A DNA stretch of 53,990 bases from the NCBI GenBank assembly GCA_018710985.1, contig DVIV01000007.1, positions 1 to 53,990 of the forward strand, given 5' to 3'. Of the stretch, positions 105 to 18,838 are shown piece by piece. Each line of letters begins with the position of its first letter. Within the stretch, counting starts at the first letter, position 1. Both the position numbers and the translations under genes were made by a program. The notes under the pieces are model-generated. The model made no database searches and was not told where the DNA came from. It saw only the letters and a program-made list of their open reading frames with translations. This DNA comes from Candidatus Limiplasma pullicola. GTDB taxonomy: Bacteria; Bacillota; Clostridia; Christensenellales; Aristaeellaceae.

Positions 105-1331
105 TTATAAGACACCCGGCGCGACCCAATAGGGATGCGGGGCTTCCGTCCACAGCGGCATGGACATTCCTCCGGGATCAAAGGCGATTTTGCCTGCTCT
201 GATGGTCATGGCGCATTCCAGCTTCCATTGTCCGTCCAAGCGTGCATTGCCGCAGTCCGTGTAACTGTAGTGTCCTTTACGTAGCCGGAGTACGGCAATG
301 TCTGCGCAGTTACCGATTGAAAGGCTGCCCGGGCCTGAAAGGCCAAATTGTCTTGCTGGATGTACTGTTACCCTAGCAATGGTTTCTTCCAGCGGCATAC
401 CGATGCACATATACTTAGACATCACGTTGAGCAGATTCAGAGCCGCACCATGGATATTGTCCATATACAAATCCGTTGAAAGGCTATCTGGTCCAAAACC
501 CTGCTGATAAGCCGGAACGGCATTTCGGAACCAAAAGCTGCCAGCCCCATGCCCTAGATCAAATTTCAATCCGCGCTTCCTAGCCTCATGCAGAAAACCG
601 CTCACTTTTCCTTTGGTGTCGAGCACCGGAAACTGCTGTGCATACATATGGGTATGAATGTCTCCCGGACGCATTCTCTGCAGTAGTCCTTCATAGGGAC
701 GATCTACCGGCCAAGGGAAAAAATCGAACATGCAGGGCTTGCCACAGCGTTCCCCAGCCTCAATAGCCGCATCCACAGATGTCCATGGCGGATGCTCCTT
801 GGTAAAGGGTTTTTGTGTCCAATAGTGCGCTGTTTTAATTGCTACAATAATGTCCGGATAAGCGTTGGCAATCTCCGCGGCCACAGCAGCGTTCATTTCA
901 GCCGGTGTCTGTTCGGACTCCATGCGCACCATACCACCCGCCGCAATATTGAGCATTGCCAGCACGCGCACCTCCGAACGGTCGATGACCTGCTCCTTGA
1001 AATGCATGAAATCGCGCCAGCCGCATGTGCCTGCATCAATAACCGTCGTTACGCCCGCTTGAATCATATGTGCATCGGCATTAATGTTATACAGTTTATC
1101 GGGCGTCTCCGGGAATGTCGGATACACATGGCAGTGGCAATCAATTAGGCCAGGCGTTACAATGCACCCGCTAACATCAACTGTCTTCTGGGCATTTTCA
1201 CCAATATCAGGTGCAATCAAGACGATTTTTCCATCTCGAATCGCCACATCGCGAACACCGTCAACATGGTTTGCAGGATCAATCACATGTCCGTTTTTCA
1301 AGAGCAGTTCAAAGGATTCCATCCCATACAT
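105..1331 (-). CDS. Amidohydrolase-superfamily metallohydrolase (cog3964 / EF0837 type)
   Basis: This 408-aa cytosolic metal-dependent hydrolase is the last gene of the catabolic operon. It has the amidohydrolase hallmarks: HxH at H66/H68, a candidate carbamylated lysine K166 in AIKTAHY, histidines at H226/H228 and H261, and the catalytic aspartate D287 in STDLY. The first ATG is preceded by GAGGTG with 7-nt spacing and lies 19 nt after the GH2 stop, so it is chosen over the ATG three codons later. Relatives are often misannotated as dihydroorotases and are commonly encoded with SelA-like PLP enzymes, as here. Characterised relatives remove acyl groups from alpha-substituted carboxylates. A deacylase step on an N-acylated amino-sugar acid is therefore plausible but inferred. 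Confidence 0.85.
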   Translation of the reverse strand: MYGMESFELLLKNGHVIDPANHVDGVRDVAIRDGKIVLIAPDIGENAQKTVDVSGCIVTPGLIDCHCHVYPTFPETPDKLYNINADAHMIQAGVTTVIDAGTCGWRDFMHFKEQVIDRSEVRVLAMLNIAAGGMVRMESEQTPAEMNAAVAAEIANAYPDIIVAIKTAHYWTQKPFTKEHPPWTSVDAAIEAGERCGKPCMFDFFPWPVDRPYEGLLQRMRPGDIHTHMYAQQFPVLDTKGKVSGFLHEARKRGLKFDLGHGAGSFWFRNAVPAYQQGFGPDSLSTDLYMDNIHGAALNLLNVMSKYMCIGMPLEETIARVTVHPARQFGLSGPGSLSIGNCADIAVLRLRKGHYSYTDCGNARLDGQWKLECAMTIRAGKIAFDPGGMSMPLWTEAPHPYWVAPGVL

Positions 1332-1350
1332 ACCGTTTCACCTCGTTCAC

Positions 1351-3807
1351 TTACATAGTCAGCTCATAGGCCTGGGAATTTAGTGCTTTAAGGAACAGTT
1401 TTCTTTGTATCAGTGGTTTTCCCCACAGCACACTGAGGCGGATAATACGCTTTGTATGCGGCGCCATGTGGAAATAGTTGTCTGACACATCCAGTCCTTC
1501 CATCTCTCCGTCAAGCTTCACCATATCTGCAAACACATCTGTTTGGATTTCAACGCTATTGCTTTCCATCTTCACCTGCAGTTGTGCCGGCGGAAAGGCC
1601 AGATCCTTGTGCTGCGCAAAAAAGCGAAACTGCGGCCTATCCTGTCCTTCAAGGTAGGCCGAAAGATAATACTGTCTTGGACGGTTGGCAATGATCACGT
1701 TGGGATAAAAGCGTCCACCTACAGCCAGTTTTTTAAGGCACTTCCTTTCCCCCGGCTTAAGCACCGCTGTTAATTTTCCTTCATAGGCAACATAGCCAAG
1801 AAAACTTCCAACCTGCACATTCATCGTCACCTGTCTGACATTACCACTGTCATTTGCACACCAGATTTCCGATACAACATCATCCACAGCAAGAATGCTT
1901 GCTGCCACAGATGCAAAGCTCTGCTTTACAGCAAAATATGCTGCTTTGGGAATCAGGTCCACATCAATGATACTCCAGCTTTGTACAGGGCAACAGTCGT
2001 TATGCTGCCATACCAGCGCCCCACCGCAGCGCGGAAAGCGCCGCCGGAAATGCTCACAGGCAAAGGCCAGCGCCTCCGCCTGGACCAGCATCGTCAGATC
2101 CACATACTCCTCTATGGTCTTGGGTTCGCCCACATGTGTACGCAGGTAGTACCACATGCGTTCCAAGTCTTGATCACGGTTAAAGTAGCGGAAAGCAAAA
2201 TCATTTAGTTTCACCTTCTGTCCGCAGCCTTTACGAACCGTAGCGAGTACAGGGGAGGCATGGATACCAAATTCACTTGCAAAAGTTGTTTGATCCTCGG
2301 CATATGCGGTATAGGGCAAATCTTTGAACCAGACATCCCAGTTATGCCGGTCATAGCTGTCCTGACCGTTCATCTGTTTCTCACCCCACGGAGAGGAGGG
2401 AAGATAGCAACGTTCAGGATCCAGATGTTTGAGCCACTGAGGTATCCATTCCTCAAACAATCTGCGTCCATACATAGGACGTTGGAGAGCAATCTTCTGA
2501 CAGAGCATCTCGCTTTCTACATTTCCGATCCACATGGCGATGCAGGGATGGCCAGCCAGCCTGGAAACGACCTTTTCTACCTCTTCTCGGACGGCACTGA
2601 CAAACTGCGGGTCAAAATCCGGATACTCACCACAGGCAAACATGAAGTACTGCCATACCAACAGTCCCATTTCATCACAGGCGTTGTAGAATGCATCGCT
2701 TTCATACACACCGCCTCCCCAGACGCTGATCAGATTCATACCGGCACTTTGCGCCATTTCGACCAGTCGGCGGTATACGCCATCCTTTACACCCGAAAGT
2801 CGGTTAGATACGGGTACCCAGTTTGCTCCACGCGCACAGAGCGGTTTGCCATTGAGGCGAATAACGAAGCAATTTTCGCCGTTTTCAAGGGTTGTCTGCA
2901 TCTCGATGACGCGCACGCCCAGCCGGCATAGCCGTTGATCCTGAATTTGGCCCTGTGCAATCAGCTCGCATTCTGCCGTATAGAGATAGGGCTGTCCCAG
3001 ATCGTGAGTCCACCACAGACGAGGGTTAGAAAGTTCGATTGTCGTTTCCGAAACGTCGGTGGTCATTTGTGCGACCACTCTTCCCTGGTCATCGCGTATG
3101 GAAAATCGATAAGCCCAATCTCCCTCCGGTGCATGAAGGCACTGAGCAGATAGACGGATTAGCGCCGATTTACCCTCTGGTGTCAAATTCGTCGTCACCG
3201 CTTGGAAACCGTTCAGCAGGCCGTTTTCCTCCATCACCAGATAAACGGGTTTCCATATGCCTACCGTGAGTACGCGGGGAGTCCAATCCCAGCCAAAGGT
3301 ATAACCCGCTTTACGCGCATAGGCGCGGTCCGTCGAATAATTGATCCAGAAACCTTCCGGCAGTTTTTTTTTGGCACACTCGGCATGCACGGGGTAAAAG
3401 CATACGATCAGATCGTTTTCTCCTACTCGGGCATAAGGTCCTATGTCCAGCGTATGCGACACGAGCATATTTTCGCAACGAGCCACAAATGTACCGTTGA
3501 GGTAGATTTCCGCAAAGGTGTCCAATCCCTCAAATCTGAGCCAAGGATATCCCTTTCCAACTTGGAGGGAGCAGCGGTATACCCAAACCCGCTCCTCTAC
3601 CCAGTAGCATAACTCATCGTTGGCTCCGACGGCCGGATCACTGATTCGCCCATGACGAATCAAGGCTGAATGCACATCCTCACAGGCATATGTGTCTATC
3701 CATCCCACATCCGGCGCCACGCCGACCAGCACCTTTTCCACATTGAATTCAGAGCTGTCAAACCCGCCAAGTTTCCATTGGTTTTGGATCAAAATCTCCG
3801 TTTTCAT
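1351..3807 (-). CDS. Glycoside hydrolase family 2, beta-mannosidase-like
   Basis: This 818-aa protein has the usual GH2 layout: jelly-roll sugar-binding domain (about 1-190), Ig-like domain (about 195-300), TIM barrel (about 300-620) and C-terminal beta domains. The TIM-barrel motifs resemble beta-mannosidases. The nucleophile is E512 in SEFG and the acid/base is E431 in WIGNVESE. Mannosidases normally read GNNE there, so the Asn before the acid/base is replaced by V430. In clan GH-A that Asn contacts the 2-OH of the sugar, so the substrate may be altered at C2, for example a 2-acetamido or 2-amino mannoside (inference). There is no signal peptide, so it acts in the cytosol on imported glycosides. 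The start follows AAGGA upstream of ATG at 3807. It lies 13 nt after the lactonase gene. Confidence 0.88.
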   Translation of the reverse strand: MKTEILIQNQWKLGGFDSSEFNVEKVLVGVAPDVGWIDTYACEDVHSALIRHGRISDPAVGANDELCYWVEERVWVYRCSLQVGKGYPWLRFEGLDTFAEIYLNGTFVARCENMLVSHTLDIGPYARVGENDLIVCFYPVHAECAKKKLPEGFWINYSTDRAYARKAGYTFGWDWTPRVLTVGIWKPVYLVMEENGLLNGFQAVTTNLTPEGKSALIRLSAQCLHAPEGDWAYRFSIRDDQGRVVAQMTTDVSETTIELSNPRLWWTHDLGQPYLYTAECELIAQGQIQDQRLCRLGVRVIEMQTTLENGENCFVIRLNGKPLCARGANWVPVSNRLSGVKDGVYRRLVEMAQSAGMNLISVWGGGVYESDAFYNACDEMGLLVWQYFMFACGEYPDFDPQFVSAVREEVEKVVSRLAGHPCIAMWIGNVESEMLCQKIALQRPMYGRRLFEEWIPQWLKHLDPERCYLPSSPWGEKQMNGQDSYDRHNWDVWFKDLPYTAYAEDQTTFASEFGIHASPVLATVRKGCGQKVKLNDFAFRYFNRDQDLERMWYYLRTHVGEPKTIEEYVDLTMLVQAEALAFACEHFRRRFPRCGGALVWQHNDCCPVQSWSIIDVDLIPKAAYFAVKQSFASVAASILAVDDVVSEIWCANDSGNVRQVTMNVQVGSFLGYVAYEGKLTAVLKPGERKCLKKLAVGGRFYPNVIIANRPRQYYLSAYLEGQDRPQFRFFAQHKDLAFPPAQLQVKMESNSVEIQTDVFADMVKLDGEMEGLDVSDNYFHMAPHTKRIIRLSVLWGKPLIQRKLFLKALNSQAYELTM

Positions 3808-3820: not shown

Positions 3821-4780
3821 TTATTTAATTTCAATAGCGCTGGATGCACCAGACAATTCGGTTTGCGCCTTTGCTATCAATTTTCCCTCCTCCAAGGCAA
3901 AGAATTGTACATTGTTGCTGCGCTGATTCATGGAAAGTACCGTTGAAGCGTCCGATGATACAGCCAGCGAACGCGGAAACTGTCCATTAAGGGGCGTTTC
4001 CCCCAGCTTCTTCATTCCGGATCCACTCGTATCAAAAAGGGAGATAGAATCTGGACCACGGTTTGGAATTAACAACAGACCACTGACCGTAAGACATGCC
4101 GCGCCGGGATAGTTGTTTTTCGGAAGTTTCCAGGTATGGAGCACAGAAAGCAAATTCGGATCCATCTCCAAAAAACTGGGATCGCTTTCGTTCACCACAT
4201 AAATACGTCCACTACATGGATCAAAAAGGATTTGCCGGGGTGCGGTGCCTTCACGCATGGGAACCACACGAACCAGTTTCCCGTCCTGCGGCTTGTAGAT
4301 AAGCAGGCAGTCCAGCCCTACATCCGCGCAATAAAGCCTATTGTCCGGACCGGTAACCGACCAGTGTGCATGTGGTGTTTTATTGGACCCATCGTCGTTG
4401 CGTACGCACCATTTGACTTCCTTCAACGCATCGTCCACGCAGAAAAGATGACCGCTCGCCCAGCATGCGCCATAGATATGGCCTGCATGCTGCGAAAGAT
4501 GACATAGTCCATAAGCGCCCTCAACCGAAATTCGTTTGCCCGTTTCAATCTTACCGTTACCAACAGAAAGCTCCACAATGGTTGCCGCCACGTCGGGCTC
4601 ATGCACTTCAAATGCTGCAAATACTCTGCCACCATCCGAAATTAGGTAGGACGGGTTTTGTCCAATCGCTGTGTGCGCCTCCGTGACGACCTTTCCTGAC
4701 TGCGGATTATAGCAAAGGAGCTTCACATCGGGTTCGCCTTCAGCGGAGTAGCCGCTTACCAGCCAACGCTGTTCCTTCAT
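3821..4780 (-). CDS. Lactonase-family beta-propeller protein (6-phosphogluconolactonase-like)
   Basis: This 319-aa protein matches the seven-bladed beta-propeller lactonase family that includes the Pgl/YkgB 6-phosphogluconolactonases. Recognisable signatures are QNPSYL, TPHAHWS, ADVGLD, GTAPRQ, NRGPDSIS and FPRSL, spread at about 45-residue intervals as expected for repeated blades. It would hydrolyse a sugar lactone to the sugar acid, the step expected after a Gfo/Idh/MocA or SDR dehydrogenase oxidises C1. Its ATG overlaps the stop of the preceding RidA gene as ATGA, so the two are translationally coupled. The family and fold are clear; the exact lactone is not. Confidence 0.85.
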   Translation of the reverse strand: MKEQRWLVSGYSAEGEPDVKLLCYNPQSGKVVTEAHTAIGQNPSYLISDGGRVFAAFEVHEPDVAATIVELSVGNGKIETGKRISVEGAYGLCHLSQHAGHIYGACWASGHLFCVDDALKEVKWCVRNDDGSNKTPHAHWSVTGPDNRLYCADVGLDCLLIYKPQDGKLVRVVPMREGTAPRQILFDPCSGRIYVVNESDPSFLEMDPNLLSVLHTWKLPKNNYPGAACLTVSGLLLIPNRGPDSISLFDTSGSGMKKLGETPLNGQFPRSLAVSSDASTVLSMNQRSNNVQFFALEEGKLIAKAQTELSGASSAIEIK

Positions 4781-5250
4781 GTGCGCTTCACCTCTACAAT
4801 TACTTCAAACTCACACGGAATGTTTCCGTTTGGCAAATTATGTGTCCCCATGACCGTACGGGCATGATAGCCGCGCTCCTCAAGTGCCGCCATGATCGTA
4901 TCGGAAAAACCATCCATGACATATTCCAGGTCATCGAACCCTTCTGTACAATTCACCAGTGCAAACACCTTGATGAACCGGCTGACAAAATCCAAACTTC
5001 CCAACGTATCTTTGAGCACACCTAAAATGATCTTGGCACATTCCCGGGCAGCCTGATAGCCTTCCTCGCGGCTTAGATCAGAGCCGATCCTACCCTTAAA
5101 AATCGGCTCACCCGATACTTGGTCCTCGGGTCCATGACCGGAGATGTAGAGCAGATCATCCACCCACCTTAGCAGCACAATACCGCGTTTTTTTGCATAA
5201 GTGGGCTCCTGTACCCGTCCATCGGCAATATATTGATGAATCCTGTCCAT
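4777..5250 (-). CDS. RidA/YjgF-family protein (first of two)
   Basis: This 157-aa member of the RidA (YjgF/YER057c/UK114) family belongs to the longer bacterial subgroup of about 155 residues. RidA enzymes hydrolyse reactive enamines and imines released by PLP-dependent lyases and dehydratases. The conserved active-site arginine is in HARTVMG and the C-terminal conserved glutamate in CEFEV. The start at 5250 is chosen because GGAGA lies 6-9 nt upstream and homology begins there; upstream in-frame codons run into the neighbouring RidA gene. The stop overlaps the lactonase ATG. A SelA-like PLP lyase is encoded four genes upstream, which suggests that this protein clears its unstable product (inference). 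Confidence 0.88.
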   Translation of the reverse strand: MDRIHQYIADGRVQEPTYAKKRGIVLLRWVDDLLYISGHGPEDQVSGEPIFKGRIGSDLSREEGYQAARECAKIILGVLKDTLGSLDFVSRFIKVFALVNCTEGFDDLEYVMDGFSDTIMAALEERGYHARTVMGTHNLPNGNIPCEFEVIVEVKRT

Positions 5251-5275: not shown

Positions 5276-5743
5276 TTATTTTCGAATGCGGACGATCGCT
5301 TCCACCGAAACCGCAGCGCCCATCGGCAGCGAATATGCGCCCATTGCCGATCTGGCATGCTGGCCTCTTCGGCCAAACACCTCCACCATCAAATCGGAAA
5401 AGCCGTTGATAACTGCAGGCTGGTCGCAAAAGTCTCCGGCACTGTTAACCAGTCCCAAAATCTTAACGAAGTAGTCCACGCGATCCAACTCGCCGATATG
5501 ATCCTTAATGGTGGCAATCACATTCAAGCCACAAAGTCTCGCTGCCTGGTATCCGTCCTCAAGAGTCAACTCGCGTCCGACCTTTCCTACATATACCGGT
5601 TTTCCCTCCACATCAACCGGCAGTTGTGCAGAAATATAGAGCATATCATCCTTAAGAACAGCGTCAACCTTGCCCGTTCCCTTCCTGTCGCGAATCGGCA
5701 GTTCGATTCCCAGTCTTTCCAGCCGGATTCCGGTTTCACTCAT
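5276..5743 (-). CDS. RidA/YjgF-family protein (second of two)
   Basis: This 155-aa paralogue lies 25 nt before the other RidA gene. It shares the GYQAAR, LGxLD, NGFSD and RGxHAR blocks but is clearly diverged. The conserved arginine is in QHARSAMG and the conserved glutamate in SVEAIV. The start at 5743 (MSETGI) has AAGGAG about 11 nt upstream. An earlier in-frame ATG at 5788 would overlap the epimerase gene and lacks a better site. RidA proteins are trimers with active sites at subunit interfaces, so two co-translated paralogues could form mixed trimers or take different imine substrates. That is inference. Confidence 0.88.
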   Translation of the reverse strand: MSETGIRLERLGIELPIRDRKGTGKVDAVLKDDMLYISAQLPVDVEGKPVYVGKVGRELTLEDGYQAARLCGLNVIATIKDHIGELDRVDYFVKILGLVNSAGDFCDQPAVINGFSDLMVEVFGRRGQHARSAMGAYSLPMGAAVSVEAIVRIRK

Positions 5744-5769: not shown

Positions 5770-7005
5770 TTACATATTGTGCAGGCATTGTTCAAACAGG
5801 TTACTAAGCATGGCAGCACAGCGAACTACATGATAAGGGCCCTTGTTCTCCATACCTTTATCTGTCCTGATTACACGATTGTCCGAGCTCAGCGCAGCAT
5901 ACCATTCCCCCATCTGATGATCGCGGAAATGCTGATCGACGTAGGCATGCAACTGTCCAAAGCGCTGGAAATGCATCTCGTTAGCGTTATAGATCGCACT
6001 GATGGCCAGTGCGTTAAGCCCCTCAGCTTGTGCCCACCAAATTTTATCATTCCAGTGAACGATAGTGCCGTAATAATCTTCAGTTTCAAAGCCCTCCCGC
6101 GGCTTTCCTCCCTCTACATCGCACAGGAGTCGCAAGCCACCGTTGGCTTTGTCCCATCCCTTTTCCCAGATCCAATCCAACACTGTCTCCGCTCGTTGCA
6201 GATATGCTGACTGATCATACATTTTGCCGGCTTTCATCAGGAACCAGCACGATTCCAGCGCGTGGCCGGGGTCCATCAGACGCCCCTGGCCCATGGGTAC
6301 GGGTTGGTACTGTTCATCCAAGGTTTCAAACACCGCTTGATACGTGTCGTTTTCAAAACCACACATGATTTTTTCAGCATAGTCTTGAGCCTGTCTGCGA
6401 TAGCGGGGACCAAAAACCTGTTCAGACTCCATAGCACACAGCAACATCATAAAATGCAGTGCGTGAATGCGTCTACCCTCTGCCATTCCTTCCGAAACCA
6501 TCAGGGCCTCATCCTGTGCGTTGTGCAAAAGCGCATCCATCGCTTCACGCGCAAAAGTCACCTGTGCCTGCGTCCGGTGATCGCCCAGTGCGGCAAGGTA
6601 TTCCAGATATCCTTTCACGCTAAAGGCGTCATTAAAAATAGAACGGGAACCATCCAGAACTCCTCCCCGACGATCCATCAGGCTATTGAAGCGATAGTCT
6701 CCCTGATGGGCATAGCGCAGCAGCCAATCTGCACCTGCCTCAGCCAACGCCAGCCAGTCCTCACGCCTTTCGACGGTATTGTACAGATTGGCAAAGGTGT
6801 AGGTATTCCGACCTACAAACCATCCTGATTTGATATCCTTCAGTCGCTTTCCCTCCCGATCAAAGCAGGAAAAGAAACCGCCACATTCGCGGTCATAAAC
6901 CCTGTTTTGCCAAAACGGAATCAGATCATCCAAAAGTTCCTGGCGATAGTAGGCGGCATATGTCTCGATTTCTTTGCGATGATTTTGTAAAAATGCCTGA
7001 TTCAT
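5770..7005 (-). CDS. N-acylglucosamine 2-epimerase (AGE) family sugar epimerase
   Basis: This 411-aa protein is a cytosolic (alpha/alpha)6-barrel epimerase. AGE signatures are visible: RNTYTFANLYN near the N terminus, DPGHALESCWFLM in the middle, and HWNDKIWWAQAEGL with its catalytic-type histidine toward the end. AGE enzymes interconvert N-acyl-glucosamine and N-acyl-mannosamine; relatives epimerise mannose or cellobiose at C2. The start at 7005 is chosen because its ATGA overlaps the kinase stop and GGGAGGGAG precedes it by about 8 nt. The ATG at 7023 lies upstream of that ribosome-binding site. With a GH2 mannosidase-like enzyme and an amino-sugar kinase in the same unit, a ManNAc/GlcNAc-type interconversion is the likely role. 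Confidence 0.88.
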   Translation of the reverse strand: MNQAFLQNHRKEIETYAAYYRQELLDDLIPFWQNRVYDRECGGFFSCFDREGKRLKDIKSGWFVGRNTYTFANLYNTVERREDWLALAEAGADWLLRYAHQGDYRFNSLMDRRGGVLDGSRSIFNDAFSVKGYLEYLAALGDHRTQAQVTFAREAMDALLHNAQDEALMVSEGMAEGRRIHALHFMMLLCAMESEQVFGPRYRRQAQDYAEKIMCGFENDTYQAVFETLDEQYQPVPMGQGRLMDPGHALESCWFLMKAGKMYDQSAYLQRAETVLDWIWEKGWDKANGGLRLLCDVEGGKPREGFETEDYYGTIVHWNDKIWWAQAEGLNALAISAIYNANEMHFQRFGQLHAYVDQHFRDHQMGEWYAALSSDNRVIRTDKGMENKGPYHVVRCAAMLSNLFEQCLHNM

Positions 7006-8015
7006 CCCTTTTCTCCCTCCCATACTGGCGGCTGAAACTCACGCATTCTAATAGTCAGACGCTCCGCATCCCCATATGCAAGGCAGCTGGAAAGCTGTCT
7101 CAACGCGCAGAGAACGGCCCCTTCCACAGGTTCCCTGTCTAGAATCATCACACGTGCTTCTGGGCAATATCGATGGATTTCCGCTCGATAGGCATCTACA
7201 AGTGCCTGACAGGTCCCTTTGCAGTAAATGGATCCAGCCAAGACCACCGGCAGTGACTTATGTTCCATACCTGCATATTTGATCATGCGTCCTGTCATAC
7301 CAGCCTGTATCCGACCGGCATCCGCAAGGATGTCGCGAGCTACACCGTCTCCGTCATTTGCTAGTTCATCCAGTAGTCGGGGAAGCTCGAAGCCATATTG
7401 GTAGGTAAATCCGCTCTCCATCACGCGCTGCGCAAGCTCATCCAGTGTTTTACAGCCGCAGCAAGCGGCCACATGGCTTTCCAGAAGGGTAGGATCACCC
7501 GTGTGCTCATGGCTCATAAAGGCAGCATTGAGCGCGCAGTCGCACAGCATCCGTCCTCCGCCGAAATTTCCCAGCGGATAACGATTAGCCCGCATACAAA
7601 GTCGTTGTCCGTTGCTCATCAAAACGCCCGTATTATGTCCCGTACCGCAAATGGAAATGGCTCCACGGGCTTCGCTGGTCTGAGCAAAAAAAGCTATCCA
7701 CAAATCGTTTTCAACGGTATGGGGCACAGCACCCAGCAACGTATGACGTAGGGCCGCCTCCAGGCGCTCCCGATCCTTTTCGGTATCTATGCCTGCAAGG
7801 GCCATATGGACATGGCCGATCTGTTCCAGTGGAATATTGGCATGTTCGGCCAAGAAACAAATACCTGCCAGCAGACGTTTCACCGTCTGCTCCATGCCGC
7901 TTAAATCATGGTTGGTACAGCCATTACGGAACTTCATCACCAGCCGTCCCTGCTCATCCGCAAGAGCGTACATGGTTTTGGTTCCGCCTCCATCAATTCC
8001 AATTACATATCTCAC
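7002..8015 (-). CDS. BadF/BadG-type ATPase, N-acetylglucosamine kinase-like
   Basis: This 337-aa ASKHA-fold kinase begins with the phosphate loop DGGGTKT (residues 8-14). It continues with the second phosphate motif CGTGHNTG and the glycine-rich NFGGGRMLCD segment typical of bacterial and eukaryotic GlcNAc kinases of the BadF/BadG/BcrA/BcrD family. It should phosphorylate an amino sugar or amino-sugar acid at O6 using ATP. The start is a GTG at 8015 overlapping the stop of the PLP-lyase gene as GTGA, with GGGGAG upstream, so the two are coupled. Whether the substrate is free amino sugar, ManNAc or glucosaminate cannot be told from sequence. Confidence 0.85.
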   Translation of the reverse strand: MRYVIGIDGGGTKTMYALADEQGRLVMKFRNGCTNHDLSGMEQTVKRLLAGICFLAEHANIPLEQIGHVHMALAGIDTEKDRERLEAALRHTLLGAVPHTVENDLWIAFFAQTSEARGAISICGTGHNTGVLMSNGQRLCMRANRYPLGNFGGGRMLCDCALNAAFMSHEHTGDPTLLESHVAACCGCKTLDELAQRVMESGFTYQYGFELPRLLDELANDGDGVARDILADAGRIQAGMTGRMIKYAGMEHKSLPVVLAGSIYCKGTCQALVDAYRAEIHRYCPEARVMILDREPVEGAVLCALRQLSSCLAYGDAERLTIRMREFQPPVWEGEKG

Positions 8016-10431: not shown

Positions 10432-10446
10432 GCTCATCTCCTCCCT

Positions 10447-11251: not shown

Positions 11252-12280
11252 CTAGGGTCGCCAAAAACACACACTTTGTTTTTCAACAACCCTGGTTCCA
11301 TAGACTTTTTTGATGGGAAAGCTCACTCTGTCACACAGTTGATCTACCAACAGGCGGATGCTGTCATACCCGATTTGAAATAACGGCTGTTCCACCGAAG
11401 TAATCTCAGGACCGGGATACTTTTCCGGTAAGATGGCTTGATTGTCAAATCCCATTACTGAAATATCCTCCGGAACCCTCAGCCCGGCGTTAAGTGCCGC
11501 ACGCACGGCATAGCTGGCGATGGCATCATCCGAGCAGAAAACGGCTGTAGGACGATCCTTCTGCTGCAATAACGTATTCATGCTGTTGTAGCCCGTGCTG
11601 TATTCCGCCATGGTATACTGAACGCTTCCATCACGCAGTTCCAACCCGTTGCTGTGCATGCAGTCCACAAAGCCATTGAATCGGTCGATCATAACCCTGC
11701 GGTTAAGATTGCCGCAAATGTGAGCGATATTGGTGTGTCCATGGTCAATCAGATACTGCGTAGCCAAACGAGCGCCGCCAACGTTATCGATCAGCAGTTT
11801 GTTGCATTCTAGATTGGGAAGATCGTTTTCAATCAGCAGGTAACGGACGGCATTTTCGTAGCTCATGTAGCGGGTGAGCTCCTTATCGCTAAGGTAAGAG
11901 CCATAGAGTACCACGCCATCCACCATGCCTTTGTTGAGATACTGAATGTACTTCTCCTTAACGGCTACATCACCGTTCATTACGCTGCAAAAGATAACAT
12001 TATAACTGGTCTGCTGCGCGCCGGTTTCAAAGCCTCGGATGAGATCATGAAAAAAGGGATCGTGCAGATTGTTAACAATAACGCCTATGGTTTCCGTGTG
12101 GCGCTTGACAAGCGCACGCGCAGCCTGATTGGGCATATATCCCAAATCTTTGATGGCCTGCTCCACCTGTTTGCGTCGCTCGTCCCGAACGCTTTGAGGG
12201 CTGTTGATCACCCTGGAAACCGTTGCAAGGGAGACACCAGCCGCATTGGCCACGTCTCGGATCGTTACAATCTTTTCCAC
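11252..12280 (-). CDS. LacI-family transcriptional regulator
   Basis: This 342-aa repressor has the N-terminal LacI helix-turn-helix and hinge helix (VTIRDVANAAGVSLATVS, then a PNQAARAL hinge) followed by a periplasmic-binding-protein-like effector domain with typical TIGVIV, DGVVLYG, HGHTNIAHI and PTAVFCSDD blocks. The start is set at the GTG at 12280, with GGAG 9 nt upstream; the earlier TTG lies in the ribosome-binding site. It is the seventh gene of the operon and not divergent from it, so it probably represses its own synthesis. A LacI/cre-type palindrome at 18,865-18,880 is its likely operator. The effector is probably a pathway intermediate. Confidence 0.92.
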   Translation of the reverse strand: MEKIVTIRDVANAAGVSLATVSRVINSPQSVRDERRKQVEQAIKDLGYMPNQAARALVKRHTETIGVIVNNLHDPFFHDLIRGFETGAQQTSYNVIFCSVMNGDVAVKEKYIQYLNKGMVDGVVLYGSYLSDKELTRYMSYENAVRYLLIENDLPNLECNKLLIDNVGGARLATQYLIDHGHTNIAHICGNLNRRVMIDRFNGFVDCMHSNGLELRDGSVQYTMAEYSTGYNSMNTLLQQKDRPTAVFCSDDAIASYAVRAALNAGLRVPEDISVMGFDNQAILPEKYPGPEITSVEQPLFQIGYDSIRLLVDQLCDRVSFPIKKVYGTRVVEKQSVCFWRP

Positions 12281-12319
12281 GCCTGAACTCTCCAAATCAC
12301 AGATTCTATCTTCTTATGC

Positions 12320-13465
12320 TCAGAAGACATAACGCGTGGTGTGATCCTCATCGAGCATATGAAGCACTTTTTGCTCATCAACCTCTATCCCCAGTCCGGG
12401 TCCTTCCGGAAGGACGTAGGCACCATTGCGCGTTACAATCGGTTTGGCCAGAGGATCCTCTGCATGTGCATGATAGGTTGAATCTATCGGCAGTTTCAAG
12501 GCCTCTAGCGCGCATACCGTCTGAACGATGGCAGCCGTCTTAATCCCCATATCCCAAGCGCAGTGATGCGCCAGAGGTAAGTTAGCAGCTTGGGCGATAT
12601 GTGCCAGCTTGACCAGTTCCGATATGCCGCCAATGGATTCCATATCTACAACTGCAGCATCCACAGCACAGTTACGAATGGCGTTAAATAGCCCGCCGGG
12701 GATGTAGCAATCTTCATTAATGGCGACTGGCACGCGGCAACGCTGGCGCAGTACAGCGTAATCCATCAGGTCGTTGCAGCGCAGGGGCTGCTCCACATAC
12801 TGCAGACGGCAATCCTCCACCGCACCGACATAGGCGACCGCCTGAGTCATATCGTAACCCTGGTTCATATCTACCCGGATATCCATTTCATCGCCTGCCA
12901 GCGTGCGTAGCATATGAGTGCGATGAATATCCTCCAGGACATCGTTGCCTCCCTTGGTTTTGATGGTAGCGTATCCCTCCTCGCGTAGCTGAGCCATTTT
13001 TTCGGCCAATTGCCCGTCATCCATCATTCCCATAGCATAGGCTATGGGCGCGCAGGAGCGCACCGCACCTCCCAACAACACATGAACTGGCTTTTTGGTA
13101 GCCTTGCCCATAATATCCCACAGTGCCATCTCCACGCCGCTTATGAAATGGAGCATATTGATATCCGGATTATACAGCGAATCCACACGTGTCTTGATCC
13201 GATTGATATCAAAAGGATCTTGACCAATCACTGCCGGACGGATCACCTCGTCCAATAACGCATTGGTCAGCTTGAGGGTAAGAATCATATTCATCTCGCC
13301 CCAGCCAATAATGCCATCGTCTGTAGTCACCTTATACAAAGCGCTGGTAGCGGATGTTGTTCCAGCGCCGCTGTCGCGACTCCCGCGGTACGGTGCAATC
13401 CCTCCATTTTCAATCGGCACTACGGCTGTACGAATGGGATACATTACGATATCCATGACTTTCAT
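12320..13465 (-). CDS. Enolase-superfamily enzyme (mandelate racemase / sugar-acid dehydratase type)
   Basis: This 381-aa enzyme has the enolase-superfamily capping domain and a C-terminal TIM barrel. Visible catalytic elements are the KxK motif K169/K171 in TIKTKGG, Mg2+ ligands D199 (RVDMNQ), E225 (YVEQPL) and E251 (INED), and H300/H301 in LAHHCAWDMG. This is the mandelate-racemase subgroup pattern, which includes many sugar-acid dehydratases and epimerases. The start at 13465 has AAGGGGG 7 nt upstream. In this operon dehydration or epimerisation of the aldonate made by the lactonase is the simplest guess. The exact reaction cannot be assigned from sequence. Confidence 0.85.
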   Translation of the reverse strand: MKVMDIVMYPIRTAVVPIENGGIAPYRGSRDSGAGTTSATSALYKVTTDDGIIGWGEMNMILTLKLTNALLDEVIRPAVIGQDPFDINRIKTRVDSLYNPDINMLHFISGVEMALWDIMGKATKKPVHVLLGGAVRSCAPIAYAMGMMDDGQLAEKMAQLREEGYATIKTKGGNDVLEDIHRTHMLRTLAGDEMDIRVDMNQGYDMTQAVAYVGAVEDCRLQYVEQPLRCNDLMDYAVLRQRCRVPVAINEDCYIPGGLFNAIRNCAVDAAVVDMESIGGISELVKLAHIAQAANLPLAHHCAWDMGIKTAAIVQTVCALEALKLPIDSTYHAHAEDPLAKPIVTRNGAYVLPEGPGLGIEVDEQKVLHMLDEDHTTRYVF

Positions 13466-13569: not shown

Positions 13570-14673
13570 TTACAAGAGAATTTCTCTTCCATCCTTAGCG
13601 GAACGCAGAAGAGCTTCTACTACGCGTACCTGCTCAATGCCACCTTCCAGCGTCGTCAAGGGAGACATCGGGTCCTCCTCACCGTCAAAGCTGTCGGCAT
13701 AGATGCAAATGCCGCTATTCCAGTCAAAACCATTTCCGTTGTCACATTCGCGCATTACGACCGCATAGCCGCCCGTCTGCCCACAAGGTTCCACTGATGC
13801 GGTATATCCGCATTCCGCCAGACGTTCGCGCGCCTTTTCCGCCTTCGCCTCACCGGCATCTACCACGAAGCTCAGACCCTGCTGACACTGGAAGCCACCG
13901 GTCTTATTGAAGATGAATCCACCCTGCGTGCCGGTAAACTGCATGTAGTTTTCACACAGCTTGTCGATGCGTTTGGTCCATTCTGTCTTCAAGCGGATGG
14001 TCAGACCACCATCATAGGTGAGGAAGCAGTCCATATAATCCACATCCGAACCGATGATGCTCTTCCTACCGATGGCATAGACCTTGATTACCTTTTGTCC
14101 GAACAAGAACGTGAGAAGGTCCACAGCATGGCTAAGCAAAAAGAATGCAGGAGAAGAGATGGATGCAAAATGGCGACTATCCTTGCCCCACAGCTGAAGA
14201 GGCACATCGATGGAATCATCAATGCGGAATTCACCATATTCGGGCCTACCGATATAGTTTTCCTTCACCAACAGCCGAATGGAACGATCCAGCGGGTAAA
14301 AACGGTTGGGAAACAGCACCTTGATCACCGTACCGGAAGCCTGCGCGGCCTTCTGTACCTCCAGTGCATCCGCAAGGGTTGTGCACAACGGTTTTTCGGA
14401 AATCACGTAAGGTACCCTGTGCGCACAGGCAGAGAGCAGCGGTTCCTTGTGATAAGGATCCTGCGTGGCTACCACCACAAGGTCAATCGCTTCATTTTCA
14501 AACATTTCATCATAGTTTGAATAGGCATGTGCACCGTTTGCTGCAGCCCACGTTTGCGCCTTTTCAGGCTTGATATCGCACACTGCCACTACACGCGTGC
14601 TTTCATGCGAGTGCAAGCGATCCGCATGTTGTGTGCCCAGAAGTCCCATTCCGATTACCGCACAGTTTTTCAT
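13570..14673 (-). CDS. Gfo/Idh/MocA-family oxidoreductase
   Basis: This 367-aa NAD(P)-dependent dehydrogenase has an N-terminal Rossmann fold (GMGLLGTQHA), the conserved EKP motif at 93-95 (ISEKPL) and the catalytic-type HAVD in the C-terminal domain. Family members oxidise or reduce sugar hydroxyls, inositols or the anomeric carbon of sugars. It lies 7 nt after the second permease gene, with AAAGGA upstream of ATG 14673. A 104-nt gap separates it from the enolase-superfamily gene. It could oxidise the imported sugar to a lactone that the beta-propeller protein then opens (inference). Confidence 0.86.
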   Translation of the reverse strand: MKNCAVIGMGLLGTQHADRLHSHESTRVVAVCDIKPEKAQTWAAANGAHAYSNYDEMFENEAIDLVVVATQDPYHKEPLLSACAHRVPYVISEKPLCTTLADALEVQKAAQASGTVIKVLFPNRFYPLDRSIRLLVKENYIGRPEYGEFRIDDSIDVPLQLWGKDSRHFASISSPAFFLLSHAVDLLTFLFGQKVIKVYAIGRKSIIGSDVDYMDCFLTYDGGLTIRLKTEWTKRIDKLCENYMQFTGTQGGFIFNKTGGFQCQQGLSFVVDAGEAKAEKARERLAECGYTASVEPCGQTGGYAVVMRECDNGNGFDWNSGICIYADSFDGEEDPMSPLTTLEGGIEQVRVVEALLRSAKDGREILL

Positions 14674-14680: not shown

Positions 14681-15535
14681 TCATCCTTTCACTGATCCTG
14701 AAGTAAGGCCCTTGATAAAGTATTTATTACAGAAAAGGAATACCAGCAGCACAGGGAACGAAATCACAACCGCTGCGCTCATCATTCCTCCCCAGTCGAT
14801 AATAAACTGTCCCTTGAATTCTTTGATCGCCACCGCCAGTGTTTTATACTTCGCGCTGTTGACAAAGTTCATGGAGAACATAAATTCTTCCCACGTGTTT
14901 AGGAAAGCGAAGATACCTGCTGTCACCAAGCCGGGCGCTGAATTGGGCATCACGACTCTGAACATGGCACCAATCCGGCTACATCCGTCGATCATAGCTG
15001 CTTCATCCATCTCCTCAGGAATGGAGCGGAAGAAGGCAGTCATGGTAAGCACCGCCATTGGCATATTTACAGCCAAATTGGTTATAATGTTGACACGGTA
15101 TGTATCGATAAATCCAATGGCAGAATAGATTTTGAAAAGTGGCACCAGCAGCACGACGGCTGGCATCATCTGCCCAAACAGAAGACTCGTAGACAGGGCC
15201 TTGCCGCCGGGAAGCGCAAAACGCGCGAAACCATAGGCAGCAAAGGATGCAATCAGGATGACCAGTGCAGTGGTGGTGCTAGAAATCAGCAGGCTGTTAA
15301 AAAAGGCTCTAGGCACGGTGGTTTCAAACAGAACGCGATGATAATTCTCAAACGAGGGATGCTCAACGACGAAGGAGGGCGGAAGGCTAAAAATCTCGCT
15401 GGCGTCCTTGAGCGAGGAAATGAACATCCACAGCGCTGGAAACAATGCTACAACAATCACCGCCGCAAGGATAATATATCCGGCAACAGCCGGAAGAATC
15501 CTATGGGTACCAGGCTTTTGAGGCTTTGCTTTCAT
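14681..15535 (-). CDS. CUT1 sugar ABC transporter permease (MalG type)
   Basis: This 284-aa membrane protein has about six transmembrane helices and the ATPase-contacting EAA loop DEAAMIDGCSRIGAMFRVVMP near residue 185, typical of MalG/MsmG permeases. Its ATG overlaps the stop of the partner permease (ATGA). With the MalF-type permease and the binding protein it forms the importer feeding the operon. No ATPase gene is in this unit, so a shared MsmX/UgpC-type ATPase encoded elsewhere must energise it (known for this family; inferred here). Confidence 0.92.
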   Translation of the reverse strand: MKAKPQKPGTHRILPAVAGYIILAAVIVVALFPALWMFISSLKDASEIFSLPPSFVVEHPSFENYHRVLFETTVPRAFFNSLLISSTTTALVILIASFAAYGFARFALPGGKALSTSLLFGQMMPAVVLLVPLFKIYSAIGFIDTYRVNIITNLAVNMPMAVLTMTAFFRSIPEEMDEAAMIDGCSRIGAMFRVVMPNSAPGLVTAGIFAFLNTWEEFMFSMNFVNSAKYKTLAVAIKEFKGQFIIDWGGMMSAAVVISFPVLLVFLFCNKYFIKGLTSGSVKG

Positions 15536-16431
15536 CTTTCCTGATCCCTCCCTATAACGAATTTGTTATAGAGCAGCGCGACGATTGCCGTAAAAGCAAA
15601 TAGTACGGTGGAGGCTGCACTTGCCTTGCCCAAATTGTAGCTCTTGAAATAGGTACGGTAAATATAGAGAGAAAGGATCTCCGTCATATGGGCGGGGCCG
15701 CCCTCTGTGAGAACATAGATAAACGTAAACGCATTCATCGTCCAGATAGTCAGCAGCAGGATGATCGTATTACAAGTCGGTGCAATAGCCGGAAGCTTGA
15801 CATGCCAAAAGACCTGCAGGCTATTGGCTCCGTCGATCACCGCAGCTTCCTTCTGATCGTCGGAAACGTTTTTCAGCGCTGCTTCGGTCATCAGGATGAC
15901 AAAGGGCGACATCTTCCAAACATTGATAATAATTGCGGCCATCATAGCTGTATCTGCAGACGATAGCCAACCCACGCTCTGGGAAATTACTCCGATGTCC
16001 TTTAGCACTTGGTTGATGATGCCGAAATCCGAATGATACATCCATTGCCACACCAGGGCACTCACCACACCGGGAAGTACCCATGGCACCATCAACGCGA
16101 TGCGCAATCCCGATTTGCCACGAATGCAGTCCATGTTGAGAACGTTAGCAATCAGAAAGCCAATAAGAAATTGAAATACTACGCTGCCGATTGTCCAGGT
16201 AATGGTGTTGCGAATAGAAAGGACAAAAATGCTGTCGCTGAATATGCTCTGAAAGTTTTTCAGTCCTGCAAAGTCCCACTGATTGTTATAAATATTAACC
16301 TTAAACAGGCTAGACACCAACGTATAGATCAGGGGAACCAGCATAACCAGAGTTACCACCAGCAAAGCCGGCAGAATATAGAGATAGTTGCCTAGTTTCA
16401 AACGTTTGATTTGGATAAGGTTTTTCTGCAT
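15532..16431 (-). CDS. CUT1 sugar ABC transporter permease (MalF type)
   Basis: This 299-aa membrane protein has six predicted helices, beginning with YILPALLVVTLVMLVPLIY, and the EAA loop KEAAVIDGANSLQVFWHVKLP. The GPAHMTEILSLYIYRTYF segment is typical of MalF-like CUT1 permeases. The start at 16431 is preferred because GGAG lies about 10 nt upstream; the ATG at 16440 is only 1 nt from the ribosome-binding site. It is translationally coupled to the MalG-type gene and separated from the binding-protein gene by a gap that contains a strong hairpin. Confidence 0.9.
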   Translation of the reverse strand: MQKNLIQIKRLKLGNYLYILPALLVVTLVMLVPLIYTLVSSLFKVNIYNNQWDFAGLKNFQSIFSDSIFVLSIRNTITWTIGSVVFQFLIGFLIANVLNMDCIRGKSGLRIALMVPWVLPGVVSALVWQWMYHSDFGIINQVLKDIGVISQSVGWLSSADTAMMAAIIINVWKMSPFVILMTEAALKNVSDDQKEAAVIDGANSLQVFWHVKLPAIAPTCNTIILLLTIWTMNAFTFIYVLTEGGPAHMTEILSLYIYRTYFKSYNLGKASAASTVLFAFTAIVALLYNKFVIGRDQER

Positions 16432-16494
16432 GGTCAGCATTCTCCTTTTGAGGCTGCGCCGCGCAGATGCGCTTGGACAGCGGCTTGGGTGAAA

Positions 16495-16525: not shown

Positions 16526-16548
16526 ACAGTTCTGACAGAAATACCATT

Positions 16549-17805
16549 TTACTGAGCCAGAAGATCGTTGACCTGCGCCTCGGCATCCGCCAGAGCGGTG
16601 GCGGCATCCTTCATGCCGGCCAGAACAGCCTGAGACTCATTGTAAATGATGTCGGTTATGGCGTTCATATTGATGTTGCCAGGCACAGGTTTGCCGTATT
16701 CAAGCGCATCGACAAAGGGTTTGAGATCGCCGCTGGTATAGGAAGGATCAGTGGCAGAACCACGGTTGGCCGACAGAGTATCAGAGAACACGACCGCGTT
16801 TTCGGCATTGGTTAGCCAAGCGCTGAAGAGGAAAGCGGCATCTCGCTCAGCTTCCTCGCAAGCGGTTGTTATGCCCAGGTCCCATCCGCCAGCCTGCGCC
16901 TTGGCGGGATACTTATCGCTGAATACGGGAACCGTGGAGAAGCCCAGCTGGATATCAGGATTTGCCTCGTAAATGGCCTCAAGGTCATAGGAAGCGGACA
17001 TATACATACCCAGCTTACCTTCCGCAAAAAGGTTACGGTTAGTGGTATTGTCGTTTTCAAGGCAGGAGGAGGGCACAATTCCCTCTTTCAGGTACATGTC
17101 GGCCCAGAATTGCAACGCCTCTACACCTTCGGGAGTATTAAAAGCCGCTGCGGTCTGGTCCTCATTGAGCAGTTCCACCCCATTGGAGAACATCAGGGTG
17201 TATACCTGAGCGGTGCAATTGCCGCTACCATAGCCACACAGGCCGAATCCATAGATGCCGTCACCCAAGGCAGTGATAGCCTTTCCATATTCCACCACGT
17301 CGGCCCAGGTCTCCGGAGCTTTTTCGGGATCCAAGCCAGCTTTTTCAAAGATCTCCTTGTTGTAGATGATCGTCATGACCTCGGTACGATACGGAATCGC
17401 ATAGTGTTTTCCATCTACCAACCCGGTTTCCAGACTGCCTTCATAGTAGGTTTCTTCCAGATCAATGCCATGTTTTTCCGCCAGCTCATCCACGTTGATC
17501 AAATAGCCCATCTTGGCATAGGGAATACACCAGGCAATAGCCATATCAATGATGTCGGGCATTGTGCCGGACATCATAGACGCAAGATACTTATCTTCCA
17601 TGCCATCCCAGGGATTATATTCGAAGGTAACGTTGATGTTGGGGTAGGTCTTTTGGAATTCTGCAAGCAATTCCTCCATCTTACCATCGTTCCAGGTGCC
17701 GGTCCACATCGTCAAATCGGCGGAGATTGAAGTATCCTCTGCCAGACTTGTACCGATCGTAAGCAGCATCATCGCAGCGAGCAACAGACTTACCAGTTTT
17801 TTCAT
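16549..17805 (-). CDS. CUT1 extracellular sugar-binding protein
   Basis: This 418-aa family-1 solute-binding protein (MalE type) has a Sec signal (MKKLV, then LLAAMMLLTIG) with a likely signal-peptidase I site after SLA at residue 22. There is no lipobox cysteine, which is unusual for a monoderm where such proteins are normally lipoproteins. The mature part shows LTMWTGTW, MPDIIDM and the YNKEIFEKAGLD block found in sugar-binding proteins. AAAGGAGG precedes ATG 17805. It would capture the operon's sugar or oligosaccharide outside the membrane. Confidence 0.9.
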   Translation of the reverse strand: MKKLVSLLLAAMMLLTIGTSLAEDTSISADLTMWTGTWNDGKMEELLAEFQKTYPNINVTFEYNPWDGMEDKYLASMMSGTMPDIIDMAIAWCIPYAKMGYLINVDELAEKHGIDLEETYYEGSLETGLVDGKHYAIPYRTEVMTIIYNKEIFEKAGLDPEKAPETWADVVEYGKAITALGDGIYGFGLCGYGSGNCTAQVYTLMFSNGVELLNEDQTAAAFNTPEGVEALQFWADMYLKEGIVPSSCLENDNTTNRNLFAEGKLGMYMSASYDLEAIYEANPDIQLGFSTVPVFSDKYPAKAQAGGWDLGITTACEEAERDAAFLFSAWLTNAENAVVFSDTLSANRGSATDPSYTSGDLKPFVDALEYGKPVPGNINMNAITDIIYNESQAVLAGMKDAATALADAEAQVNDLLAQ

Positions 17806-17857
17806 TGGGTATGCCTCCTTTTATAATGTTTTTTTGATGCCCAAGCAAGGTGGTTAT

Positions 17858-18838
17858 TTACAGCGCTATGCGCTGTCCGGTTCTAACTGATTCGCACTCT
17901 TTTTCGACCATGAAAATGGTATTGCGTGCACTTTGAGGAGTAACTGCTGTTTTTTCAATTCGCCCTGCAATCCAGTCCACAAACTCCGTCAGTTCCTGAT
18001 AAACACCCACAATCTCGGAAGGGACCCCTTCAAGCGTTTCCAGTTGTGCCGTAAACGGTTCTGTTCTGGATGGATAACAGGTGACCACGCCATTTTTGTA
18101 CTCCAACGTTCCATGCTCAAAAGCAGCCAGATACCCCCCTGCCCATGGAAGGGTAGAATCATTCCAGCCGCCAAGTGCCGACACCGCAAAACCTTTCCCA
18201 TGGTACAAATAATGCGTATTGATATAGCTCATATGGATTTCGGGCCGTTCGCTGCCCACGCTGTCTACAGCATCCGGCAGTCCAAAAAGATAGTTGACCA
18301 TATCTGTATCATGGATGTGCATTTCATAACAGACCATTTTACACAGGTCCGGATTAAGATACCAAGATCCCTCCGGATGCATTCCGTACTGGCGCGTCAG
18401 TGAAAGATAGCACAGTTTTCCATAGCGCTGATCGTCAATACATGCTTTGAGAAATCTGTACTCCGGCCAGTACCTGAGCACCTGTCCCACCATGAGTTTG
18501 ACACCGCTGTGAGCAGCTCTTGCGATCATTTCGTCCGCTTCCCGGCACGTGTGAGCCATTGGCTTTTCACAAAACACATGCAACCCTCTGTCAATGCATT
18601 TTAGCGCATAGTCCGTATGCAAAAACGAAGGCACGCAGATATCCACTGCGTCAGGCTGTTCGTGTTCCAGCATCTCATCCAAGCTATGGTAGGCTCTGCA
18701 GTTCATTTGTTTGGCATAGCGCTGCGCGATTTCCAGGTTAGCATCGACAATCGCCATCACCTCAAGTCCTTTGACGTAAGGAAAGGCCTGAATATGATTG
18801 GCACCCATTCCGCCTGCTCCAACCAATGTGATCTTCAT
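17858..18838 (-). CDS. Gfo/Idh/MocA-family oxidoreductase, first gene of the operon
   Basis: This 326-aa NAD(P)-dependent oxidoreductase has the Rossmann motif GAGGMGANH, the EKP motif at 91-93 (CEKPMAH) and the catalytic-type MHIHDTD block. It is only distantly related to the second family member in the same operon. GAGGAG lies 8-9 nt before ATG 18838. It is the first gene after the promoter at 18,894-18,922, about 50 nt downstream of the predicted transcription start. Its position before the transporter genes suggests an early step on the imported sugar, but the substrate is unknown. Confidence 0.88.
   Translation of the reverse strand: MKITLVGAGGMGANHIQAFPYVKGLEVMAIVDANLEIAQRYAKQMNCRAYHSLDEMLEHEQPDAVDICVPSFLHTDYALKCIDRGLHVFCEKPMAHTCREADEMIARAAHSGVKLMVGQVLRYWPEYRFLKACIDDQRYGKLCYLSLTRQYGMHPEGSWYLNPDLCKMVCYEMHIHDTDMVNYLFGLPDAVDSVGSERPEIHMSYINTHYLYHGKGFAVSALGGWNDSTLPWAGGYLAAFEHGTLEYKNGVVTCYPSRTEPFTAQLETLEGVPSEIVGVYQELTEFVDWIAGRIEKTAVTPQSARNTIFMVEKECESVRTGQRIAL

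What the first reader, a model, noticed from the sequence alone, without database searches (positions are those of the whole stretch)
105..18838. Candidate oxidative amino-sugar catabolic operon with a DgaE-like lyase and RidA partners
Seen: a single LacI-controlled 17-gene unit with a CUT1 importer, GH2 and GH4 glycosidases, amino-sugar 2-epimerase, BadF-type kinase, two Gfo/Idh/MocA dehydrogenases, SDR, beta-propeller lactonase, enolase-superfamily enzyme, cog3964 amidohydrolase, SelA/DgaE-like PLP lyase and two RidA proteins. Established: lactonases open aldonolactones; DgaE deaminates glucosaminate-6-phosphate; RidA hydrolyses enamines/imines released by PLP lyases. Inference: the sugar is oxidised to a lactone, opened to an (N-acyl) amino-sugar acid, deacylated, phosphorylated and deaminated to a 2-keto-3-deoxy acid. 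NagA/NagB and a KDPG aldolase are missing, so the route is not the classical one.
Basis: partly seen in the sequence, partly recalled or inferred. Interest (0 to 1): 0.78.

Follow-up and report, generated by a model that had tools for sequence, protein, structure and literature searches.

The report
Operon for oxidative amino-sugar breakdown
A gut-type bacterium carries a 17-gene unit that probably imports an N-acetylated amino sugar, oxidises it to a sugar acid, strips off the acetyl and amino groups without first adding phosphate, and uses a conserved pair of 'repair' proteins for the deamination step; this is a plausible new variant of a rarely described route.

Summary
The 17 genes are there and form one compact minus-strand unit. 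A perfect sigma-70-type promoter is followed by a perfect LacI-type operator; similar sites occur in 4 of 13 related loci.

Comparison with 80 named loci and some unnamed ones shows a conserved core: SDR, DgaE-like lyase, RidA-like pair, cog3964 amidohydrolase, often with lactonase and 2-epimerase. The lyase is not DgaE: it lacks the His162/His163 proton-donor pair and two of three phosphate-site arginines. Its substrate is therefore probably the unphosphorylated amino-sugar acid, giving KDG. One relative has KDPG aldolase and a PfkB kinase just downstream; here both sit on another contig in a hexuronate cluster. NagA and a NagB-like gene are elsewhere too. The BadF-type kinase occurs with the GH4 6-phospho-glycosidase kin, so it more likely phosphorylates a disaccharide.

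My idea that a His-less lyase obliges a RidA partner is only weakly supported (Rid nearby: 2 of 18 SHH against 31 of 93 His-less, p=0.09).

Verdict: a new variant of a known kind. Substrate and every reaction remain inferred.

The parts
18894..18922 (-). sigma-70-type promoter TTGACA-17-TATAAT, 12 of 12
18865..18880 (.). LacI-type operator TTGAAAACGTTTTCAA, perfect palindrome
   Evidence: With up to 2 mismatches 3 places in the 2.78-Mb genome, only this one perfect; the reversed control pattern gave 2, so the count alone is not above control. 14-bp core with up to 2 mismatches: 2 in the window, shuffles mean 0.15, none of 100 with 2
9536..9551 (.). second operator-like site (2 mismatches) inside the GH4 gene
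17858..18838 (-). Gfo/Idh/MocA oxidoreductase 1 (P0017), accessory
16549..17805 (-). CUT1-type solute-binding protein (P0016)
15532..16440 (-). ABC permease 1 (P0015)
14681..15535 (-). ABC permease 2 (P0014)
13570..14673 (-). Gfo/Idh/MocA oxidoreductase 2 (P0013); 57% identical relative in L060 beside a related ABC importer (55-62%)
12320..13465 (-). enolase-superfamily acid-sugar dehydratase-like enzyme (P0012), accessory; start taken as ATG 13465
11252..12295 (-). LacI-family regulator (P0011)
10447..11235 (-). SDR dehydrogenase (P0010), core; proposed N-acylhexosamine 1-dehydrogenase; start taken as ATG 11235
9130..10437 (-). GH4 enzyme (P0009), kin of 6-phospho-beta-glucosidases
8012..9115 (-). 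DgaE-like PLP lyase (P0008), core; His162/His163 and two of three phosphate-site Args missing; start taken as ATG 9115
7002..8015 (-). BadF-type sugar kinase (P0007)
5770..7005 (-). N-acylglucosamine 2-epimerase-family enzyme (P0006); likely start ATG 7005, by count
5276..5743 (-). RidA-like protein 1 (P0005), core; start taken as ATG 5743
4777..5250 (-). RidA-like protein 2 (P0004), core; start taken as the ATG of MDRIH, 5250 by count
3821..4780 (-). seven-bladed beta-propeller lactonase (P0003)
1351..3807 (-). GH2 beta-mannosidase-type glycosidase (P0002)
105..1331 (-). cog3964-type amidohydrolase (P0001), core; proposed N-deacetylase
10..56 (+). hairpin followed by T run, terminator-like for a convergent gene beyond the contig end
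   Evidence: not among the sites listed by the scan

Best explanation
A LacI-controlled operon for oxidative, non-phosphorylative breakdown of an N-acetylhexosamine (GlcNAc or ManNAc) that arrives free or in a small beta-glycoside. Proposed order: (1) ABC import; (2) the glycoside is opened by GH2, or phosphorylated by the BadF kinase and then opened by the GH4 6-phospho-glycosidase; (3) the 2-epimerase-family enzyme interconverts ManNAc and GlcNAc; (4) the SDR oxidises C1 to the lactone; (5) the beta-propeller lactonase opens it to the N-acetyl-aminosugar acid; (6) the cog3964 amidohydrolase removes acetate; (7) the DgaE-like PLP lyase eliminates the 3-OH and hands the enamine/imine to the Rid pair, which releases NH3 and 2-keto-3-deoxygluconate (KDG); (8) KDG kinase and KDPG aldolase, encoded elsewhere in this genome, give pyruvate and glyceraldehyde-3-phosphate. 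Shown by computation: gene families, conserved linkage of the core, an operator at the promoter, loss of most of the phosphate site, presence of a KDPG aldolase and a KDG-type kinase in the genome. Inferred: every reaction, the order, and the substrate.
For: Core linkage: of 29 other cassette-clade loci, SDR 22, RidA1 19, RidA2 the same 19, cog3964 19, lactonase 12 (at 24% identity or more), epimerase 10; some contigs end right behind the lyase. The clade of 30 lyases has 99% SH-aLRT support in a quick tree. Three loci not in that set (L238-L240) also have the Rid pair, two of them with cog3964. Lyase: PLP Lys kept; DGL Arg332 is R in 20 of 20 SHH rows and 2 of 93 others (P0008 G); Arg346 15 of 20 against at most 2 of 93 (P0008 L); Arg301 kept. 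Product: L050 has KDPG aldolase and a PfkB kinase just downstream of the cassette; the own genome has both in a hexuronate cluster. Rid: the column I take as the imine-hydrolysis Arg is R in 46 of 46 (role of the Arg from PMC4433059, passages). cog3964: HxH, Lys, two His and Asp kept in 54-56 of 56. GH4 closest to 6-phospho-beta-glucosidases 5c3m/1s6y, E about 1e-98. The chemistry has a precedent in the ong pathway (PMC9537276, passages).
Confidence: 0.55

Rival explanations
1. One reading: the amino-sugar acid is phosphorylated by the BadF kinase and then deaminated as in DgaE, giving KDPG directly.
For: A kinase stands next to the lyase; P0008 shares 26% identity and fold with DGL; the kinase's best PDB hit is a MurNAc/GlcNAc kinase.
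Against: Two of three phosphate-site arginines are absent. The kinase is seen in only 2 of 29 related cassette loci, both with GH4, while lyase and Rid pair persist without it.
Confidence: 0.12
2. The core handles N-acyl-beta-hydroxy-D-amino acids or another non-sugar acyl amino acid, and the sugar genes are separate cargo.
For: cog3964 enzymes are recalled to act on N-acetyl-D-amino acids and acetyl-(R)-mandelate (recalled; the paper is not held). Many His-less lyases sit with cog3964 and no Rid gene (24 rows labelled cogonly).
Against: Lactonase (12 of 29), N-acylglucosamine 2-epimerase-family (10 of 29) and LacI (14 of 29) recur with the core; operator-like sites lie in or before such clusters in L046, L050, L060 and L065.
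Confidence: 0.18
3. The lyase is a Cap15-type PLP- and O2-dependent oxidative enzyme, not an ammonia lyase.
Against: Its closest relatives are largely gut and rumen Clostridia (titles), where O2-dependent catabolism is unlikely; the sequence score is higher for DGL than for 8t7j (121.8 against 108 bits); the Rid pair fits an elimination.
Confidence: 0.06
4. A neutral beta-mannoside/glucoside operon in which the MR-type dehydratase makes KDG from an aldonate, and the lyase and Rid pair are secondary.
For: GH2, GH4, two Gfo/Idh/MocA proteins, lactonase and an acid-sugar dehydratase-like enzyme are all present.
Against: Dehydratase and Gfo1 have no close relative in the 29 cassette loci, while lyase and Rid pair are the constant part; distant enolase-superfamily genes (19-27%) do stand in some.
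Confidence: 0.09

Closest known systems
ong pathway for chitin-derived GlcNAc1A in Pseudoalteromonas prydzensis ACAM 620 (PMC9537276, passages read)
   Same: Unphosphorylated N-acetyl-aminosugar acid is deacetylated, deaminated to KDG, then phosphorylated; a RidA-family gene (OngD) is essential for growth on GlcNAc1A, role unknown.
   Different: [quoted passage not shown] Here cog3964, a SelA/DgaE-fold lyase, a Rid pair, SDR plus lactonase for oxidation inside the cell, and LacI.
DgaE/DgaF D-glucosaminate pathway of Salmonella (DGL; PMC9529869, passages read)
   Same: Fold, PLP lysine, proposed beta-elimination of a 2-amino-sugar acid.
   Different: PTS import makes the 6-phosphate; DGL has His162/His163 and a three-Arg phosphate site, and no dedicated RidA gene is named in the passages read. 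P0008 lacks the His pair and two of the Args.
Predicted GlcNAc route of Natrarchaeobius (PMC12343721, passages read)
   Same: Genome-predicted oxidation to glucosaminate and a DgaE homologue; a RutC-family gene in the clusters (RutC as a Rid relative is recalled).
   Different: Deacetylation before oxidation, phosphorylation before deamination, archaeal CE14 enzymes.
Hexuronate cluster on contig C53 of the same genome
   Same: Holds the KDPG aldolase and KDG-type kinase that the operon lacks.
   Different: Has uronate isomerase and tagaturonate reductase, so starts from hexuronates; its own LacI- and IclR-like regulators (my reading).

Membership tests
[quoted passage not shown]
   147.8 and 172.6 bits. 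Weak test: none of 398 genomes of the phylum passes 600, and the 16 best rows of that search score 308-472
[quoted passage not shown]
   conservation as stated in PMC9529869
[quoted passage not shown]
   only Arg301 kept
[quoted passage not shown]
   [not shown]
ong-type GlcNAc1A pathway | OngB-type D-aminoacylase-like deacetylase | tested here: not met
   P0001 matches 8je0, 8wzy and 2ics over its length; the D-aminoacylases listed match only about residues 6-104
ong-type GlcNAc1A pathway | deacetylation and deamination of unphosphorylated acid to KDG | not testable with these tools
   needs enzyme assay
cog3964-type amidohydrolase | score above NF006689 (PRK09237) cut-off 371 | tested here: not met
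   367 bits, just below, aligned 6-383 of 408; metal-site residues kept
imine-hydrolysing Rid proteins (RidA, Rid1-Rid3) | conserved Arg required for imine hydrolysis | tested here: met
   R in 46 of 46 Rid-family ORFs of the first profile, both window copies included; that this column is the catalytic Arg is my reading of the HAR/PAR motif
GH4 6-phospho-beta-glucosidase group | closest solved relatives are named 6-phospho-beta-glucosidases | tested here: met
   5c3m, 1s6y E about 1e-98; alpha-glucosidase 1obb 3e-18
GlcNAc 2-epimerase family (PF07221) | Pfam gathering score 23.4 | tested here: met
   136.5 bits
N-acyl-D-glucosamine 2-epimerase (NF052547 equivalog) | cut-off 600 | tested here: not met
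   231.6 bits, best family, next is cellobiose epimerase 32.4; two His that I recall as catalytic align in 8bry
LacI regulation | palindromic CG-centred operator near the promoter, shared with orthologous clusters | tested here: met
   perfect site in the window; sites with up to 2 mismatches in 4 of 13 related loci

The most novel reading that the evidence does not exclude
The His-less lyase cannot protonate its own enamine, so the Rid pair is an on-pathway catalyst (perhaps a heteromer), not damage control. This would give an Arg-bearing Rid subgroup a physiological substrate: the enamine of a 2-amino-sugar acid.
Probability: 0.22. Interest if true: 0.75.

Novelty: new variant of a known kind. 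Interest (0 to 1): 0.55.

Why it matters
If right, gut Clostridia have a phosphate-free oxidative route for N-acetylhexosamines built from enzymes whose database names are selenium transferase, dihydroorotase and endoribonuclease. It would give a job to a group of cog3964 amidohydrolases and to a Rid pair. PMC4433059 (passages) says that nothing is known of the in vivo substrates of Rid1-Rid3, and the ong paper (passages) could not place its RidA protein. The core proteins can be tested together in vitro.

Tried and rejected
1. 'His-less lyase therefore RidA': with a narrow Rid profile the contrast looked absolute (0 of 20 SHH rows with a Rid gene within 8 kb). A broader profile found PF01042-type Rid genes beside two SHH lyases (L169, L170) and beside more His-less ones. 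The count became 2 of 18 against 31 of 93 (Fisher p=0.089); with at least 6 kb downstream 2 of 15 against 27 of 59 (p=0.036) (two duplicate SHH rows dropped before the count). Rows are related, so even 0.036 overstates it. I keep it as the novel case only.

2. Second promoter at 13492-13464: rejected because its -10 overlaps the start codon assigned to P0012.

3. 'Missing' KDPG aldolase and NagA/NagB as a sign of a new route: rejected, matches are elsewhere in the genome.

4. GH4-kinase coupling: GH4 and BadF are seen in the same 2 of the 19 Rid-pair loci, plus the window. The chance figure (1 in 1140) ignores relatedness and was set up after seeing the pattern. L240 has GH4 beside a Rid pair with no BadF on a 6.5-kb contig: against it, or truncation.

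5. A KDPG-aldolase profile was built out of frame and is void; repeated.

6. SDR identity: PDB search unspecific. The structural comparison sees only Foldseek's top 1000 chains.

7. Operator contrast: the 13 loci were listed after one search had shown where sites lie, and the 10 sites fall in only 4 of them (L046, L050, L060, L065); post hoc, so indicative only.

8. Literature: in the rows listed I saw no paper describing this cassette; two of these had 915 and 2,437 hits with 20 listed, only CC-licensed PMC is held, and two papers looked for are not held.

Full report
What is there. The window is contig C25 of a 2.78-Mb, 66-contig genome. Seventeen ORFs from 105 to 18838 lie on the minus strand in the order Gfo1, solute-binding protein, permease 1, permease 2, Gfo2, enolase-superfamily enzyme, LacI, SDR, GH4, DgaE-like lyase, BadF kinase, 2-epimerase family, RidA1, RidA2, lactonase, GH2, cog3964 amidohydrolase (families). 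Of 16 gaps 13 are under 30 bp.

Regulation. A 12-of-12 TTGACA-17-TATAAT (18922-18894) is followed by the perfect palindrome TTGAAAACGTTTTCAA at 18865-18880 and then the first gene. In the whole genome three places match with up to two mismatches: this one (perfect), one inside the GH4 gene (9536-9551) and one on contig C27; the control pattern gave two, so only the perfect match and its place are telling. In the window the 14-bp core with up to two mismatches occurs twice against a shuffled mean of 0.15. Over the other loci, sites with up to two mismatches number 10 in 13 loci with related cassettes (220 kb) against 3 in 90 other loci (1,346 kb); 20 block-shuffles of the 13, made by my own script, gave 0. 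The 13 were listed after one search had shown the sites, and the 10 sites lie in 4 of them: in L046, L050 and L065 one stands just before the LacI gene and others lie inside the cluster, in L060 one lies before the importer genes. A looser scan for CG-centred palindromes upstream of LacI found one or more in 9 of 14 loci and none in L047, L053, L056, L059 and L060; no chance control was run for it. I take this together as fair evidence that the LacI protein controls the unit.

The conserved core. An alignment of seven lyases was used to scan the collection of species genomes; of 497 confirmed stretches the best 80 were kept. Neighbourhoods show SDR, lyase, RidA1, RidA2 and cog3964 travelling together in Clostridia, often with lactonase and 2-epimerase. 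L058 and L065 carry most of the set including GH4 and BadF. In the 29 loci of the lyase clade other than the window: SDR 22, RidA1 19, RidA2 19 (the same 19), cog3964 19, LacI 14, lactonase 12, epimerase 10, GH2 3, GH4 2, BadF 2, Gfo2 1, KDPG aldolase and kinase 1, Gfo1 0, enolase-superfamily 0, at identity thresholds set in the script and anywhere in the locus. Distant Gfo and enolase-superfamily matches (19-28%) are not counted there but are shown. In the window's family 10 of 308 genomes, the own one included, hold a RidA1 of at least 58% identity, at 11 places, and at each of the 11 a second Rid match lies close behind. In the phylum sample 135 of 398 genomes have a RidA1 match at E up to 1e-15, the best outside the own genome 51-53% identical; two of those (L242, L243) show no other cassette gene, so Rid proteins of this kind also live elsewhere.

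Rid proteins. Both are PF14588-like (P0004 below Pfam's cut-off; its L065 counterpart above it). The column I take as the catalytic Arg is invariant in 46 of 46. That Rid1-Rid3 keep this Arg and have unknown in vivo substrates is from PMC4433059 (passages); which Rid subgroup PF14588 corresponds to I did not test. The idea that loss of His163 forces a Rid partner is not borne out as a rule (see Tried and rejected): 62 of 93 His-less lyases show no Rid gene within 8 kb, some of them on short flanks, and 2 of 18 SHH lyases do.

Fate of the product. In L050 (Candidatus Fournierella pullicola) the cassette is followed by an RraA-like ORF (my reading), a KDPG aldolase (PF01081) and a PfkB kinase. 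Among 104 loci searched the aldolase was found in L050, L072, L082 and L173. In the window's genome KDPG aldolase ('eda', above cut-off) and a kinase whose best models are KDG-kinase types (below cut-off) stand on C53 with uronate isomerase and tagaturonate reductase. NagA and a NagB-like gene are on C27 and C57.

GH4 and the kinase. P0009 is closest to 6-phospho-beta-glucosidases. The BadF kinase's best solved relative is a MurNAc/GlcNAc kinase. Their joint occurrence in the window, L058 and L065, which lie on different branches of the lyase tree, suggests a phosphorylate-then-cleave module for a disaccharide. The numbers are small and L240 does not fit unless truncated.

Precedent and novelty. 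The ong pathway (PMC9537276, passages) shows that an unphosphorylated GlcNAc1A to KDG route exists and needs a RidA-family protein of unknown role; its deacetylase and deaminase are of other families, and its substrate is made outside the cell. Here the oxidation would be intracellular. I saw no description of this cassette in the rows listed by nine searches of the held library (see Tried and rejected). Hence 'new variant of a known kind'. The substrate, the reactions and their order are inference.

Noticed in passing
window 34822-38787 (+): A 1321-aa ORF matches Pfam PF10712 'NAD-specific glutamate dehydrogenase' at 1e-158 but lies antisense to dnaK (36925-38778, HSP70 E 4e-253) and dnaJ; the match is best read as an antisense artefact.
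   Followed up: yes
window 35686-40525 (-): hrcA-grpE-dnaK-dnaJ heat-shock cluster in the same contig.
   Followed up: partly
L055, L059, L061, L062, L064, L066: A second cluster type: ABC importer whose first permease is 47-53% identical, a distant enolase-superfamily gene and a His-less lyase; Rid genes in one of the six, L066.
   Followed up: no
L169, L170: Two SHH-type lyases with an adjacent PF01042-type Rid gene (the type is my reading).
   Followed up: no
L040 and L041: Tandem pairs of divergent DgaE-family genes; in one of each pair the PLP lysine column holds Arg, so that copy may be inactive.
   Followed up: no
window 9536-9551: Operator-like site inside the GH4 gene; similar sites lie inside the clusters of L046, L050 and L065, some within SDR and epimerase genes, perhaps looping or roadblock sites.
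   Followed up: partly
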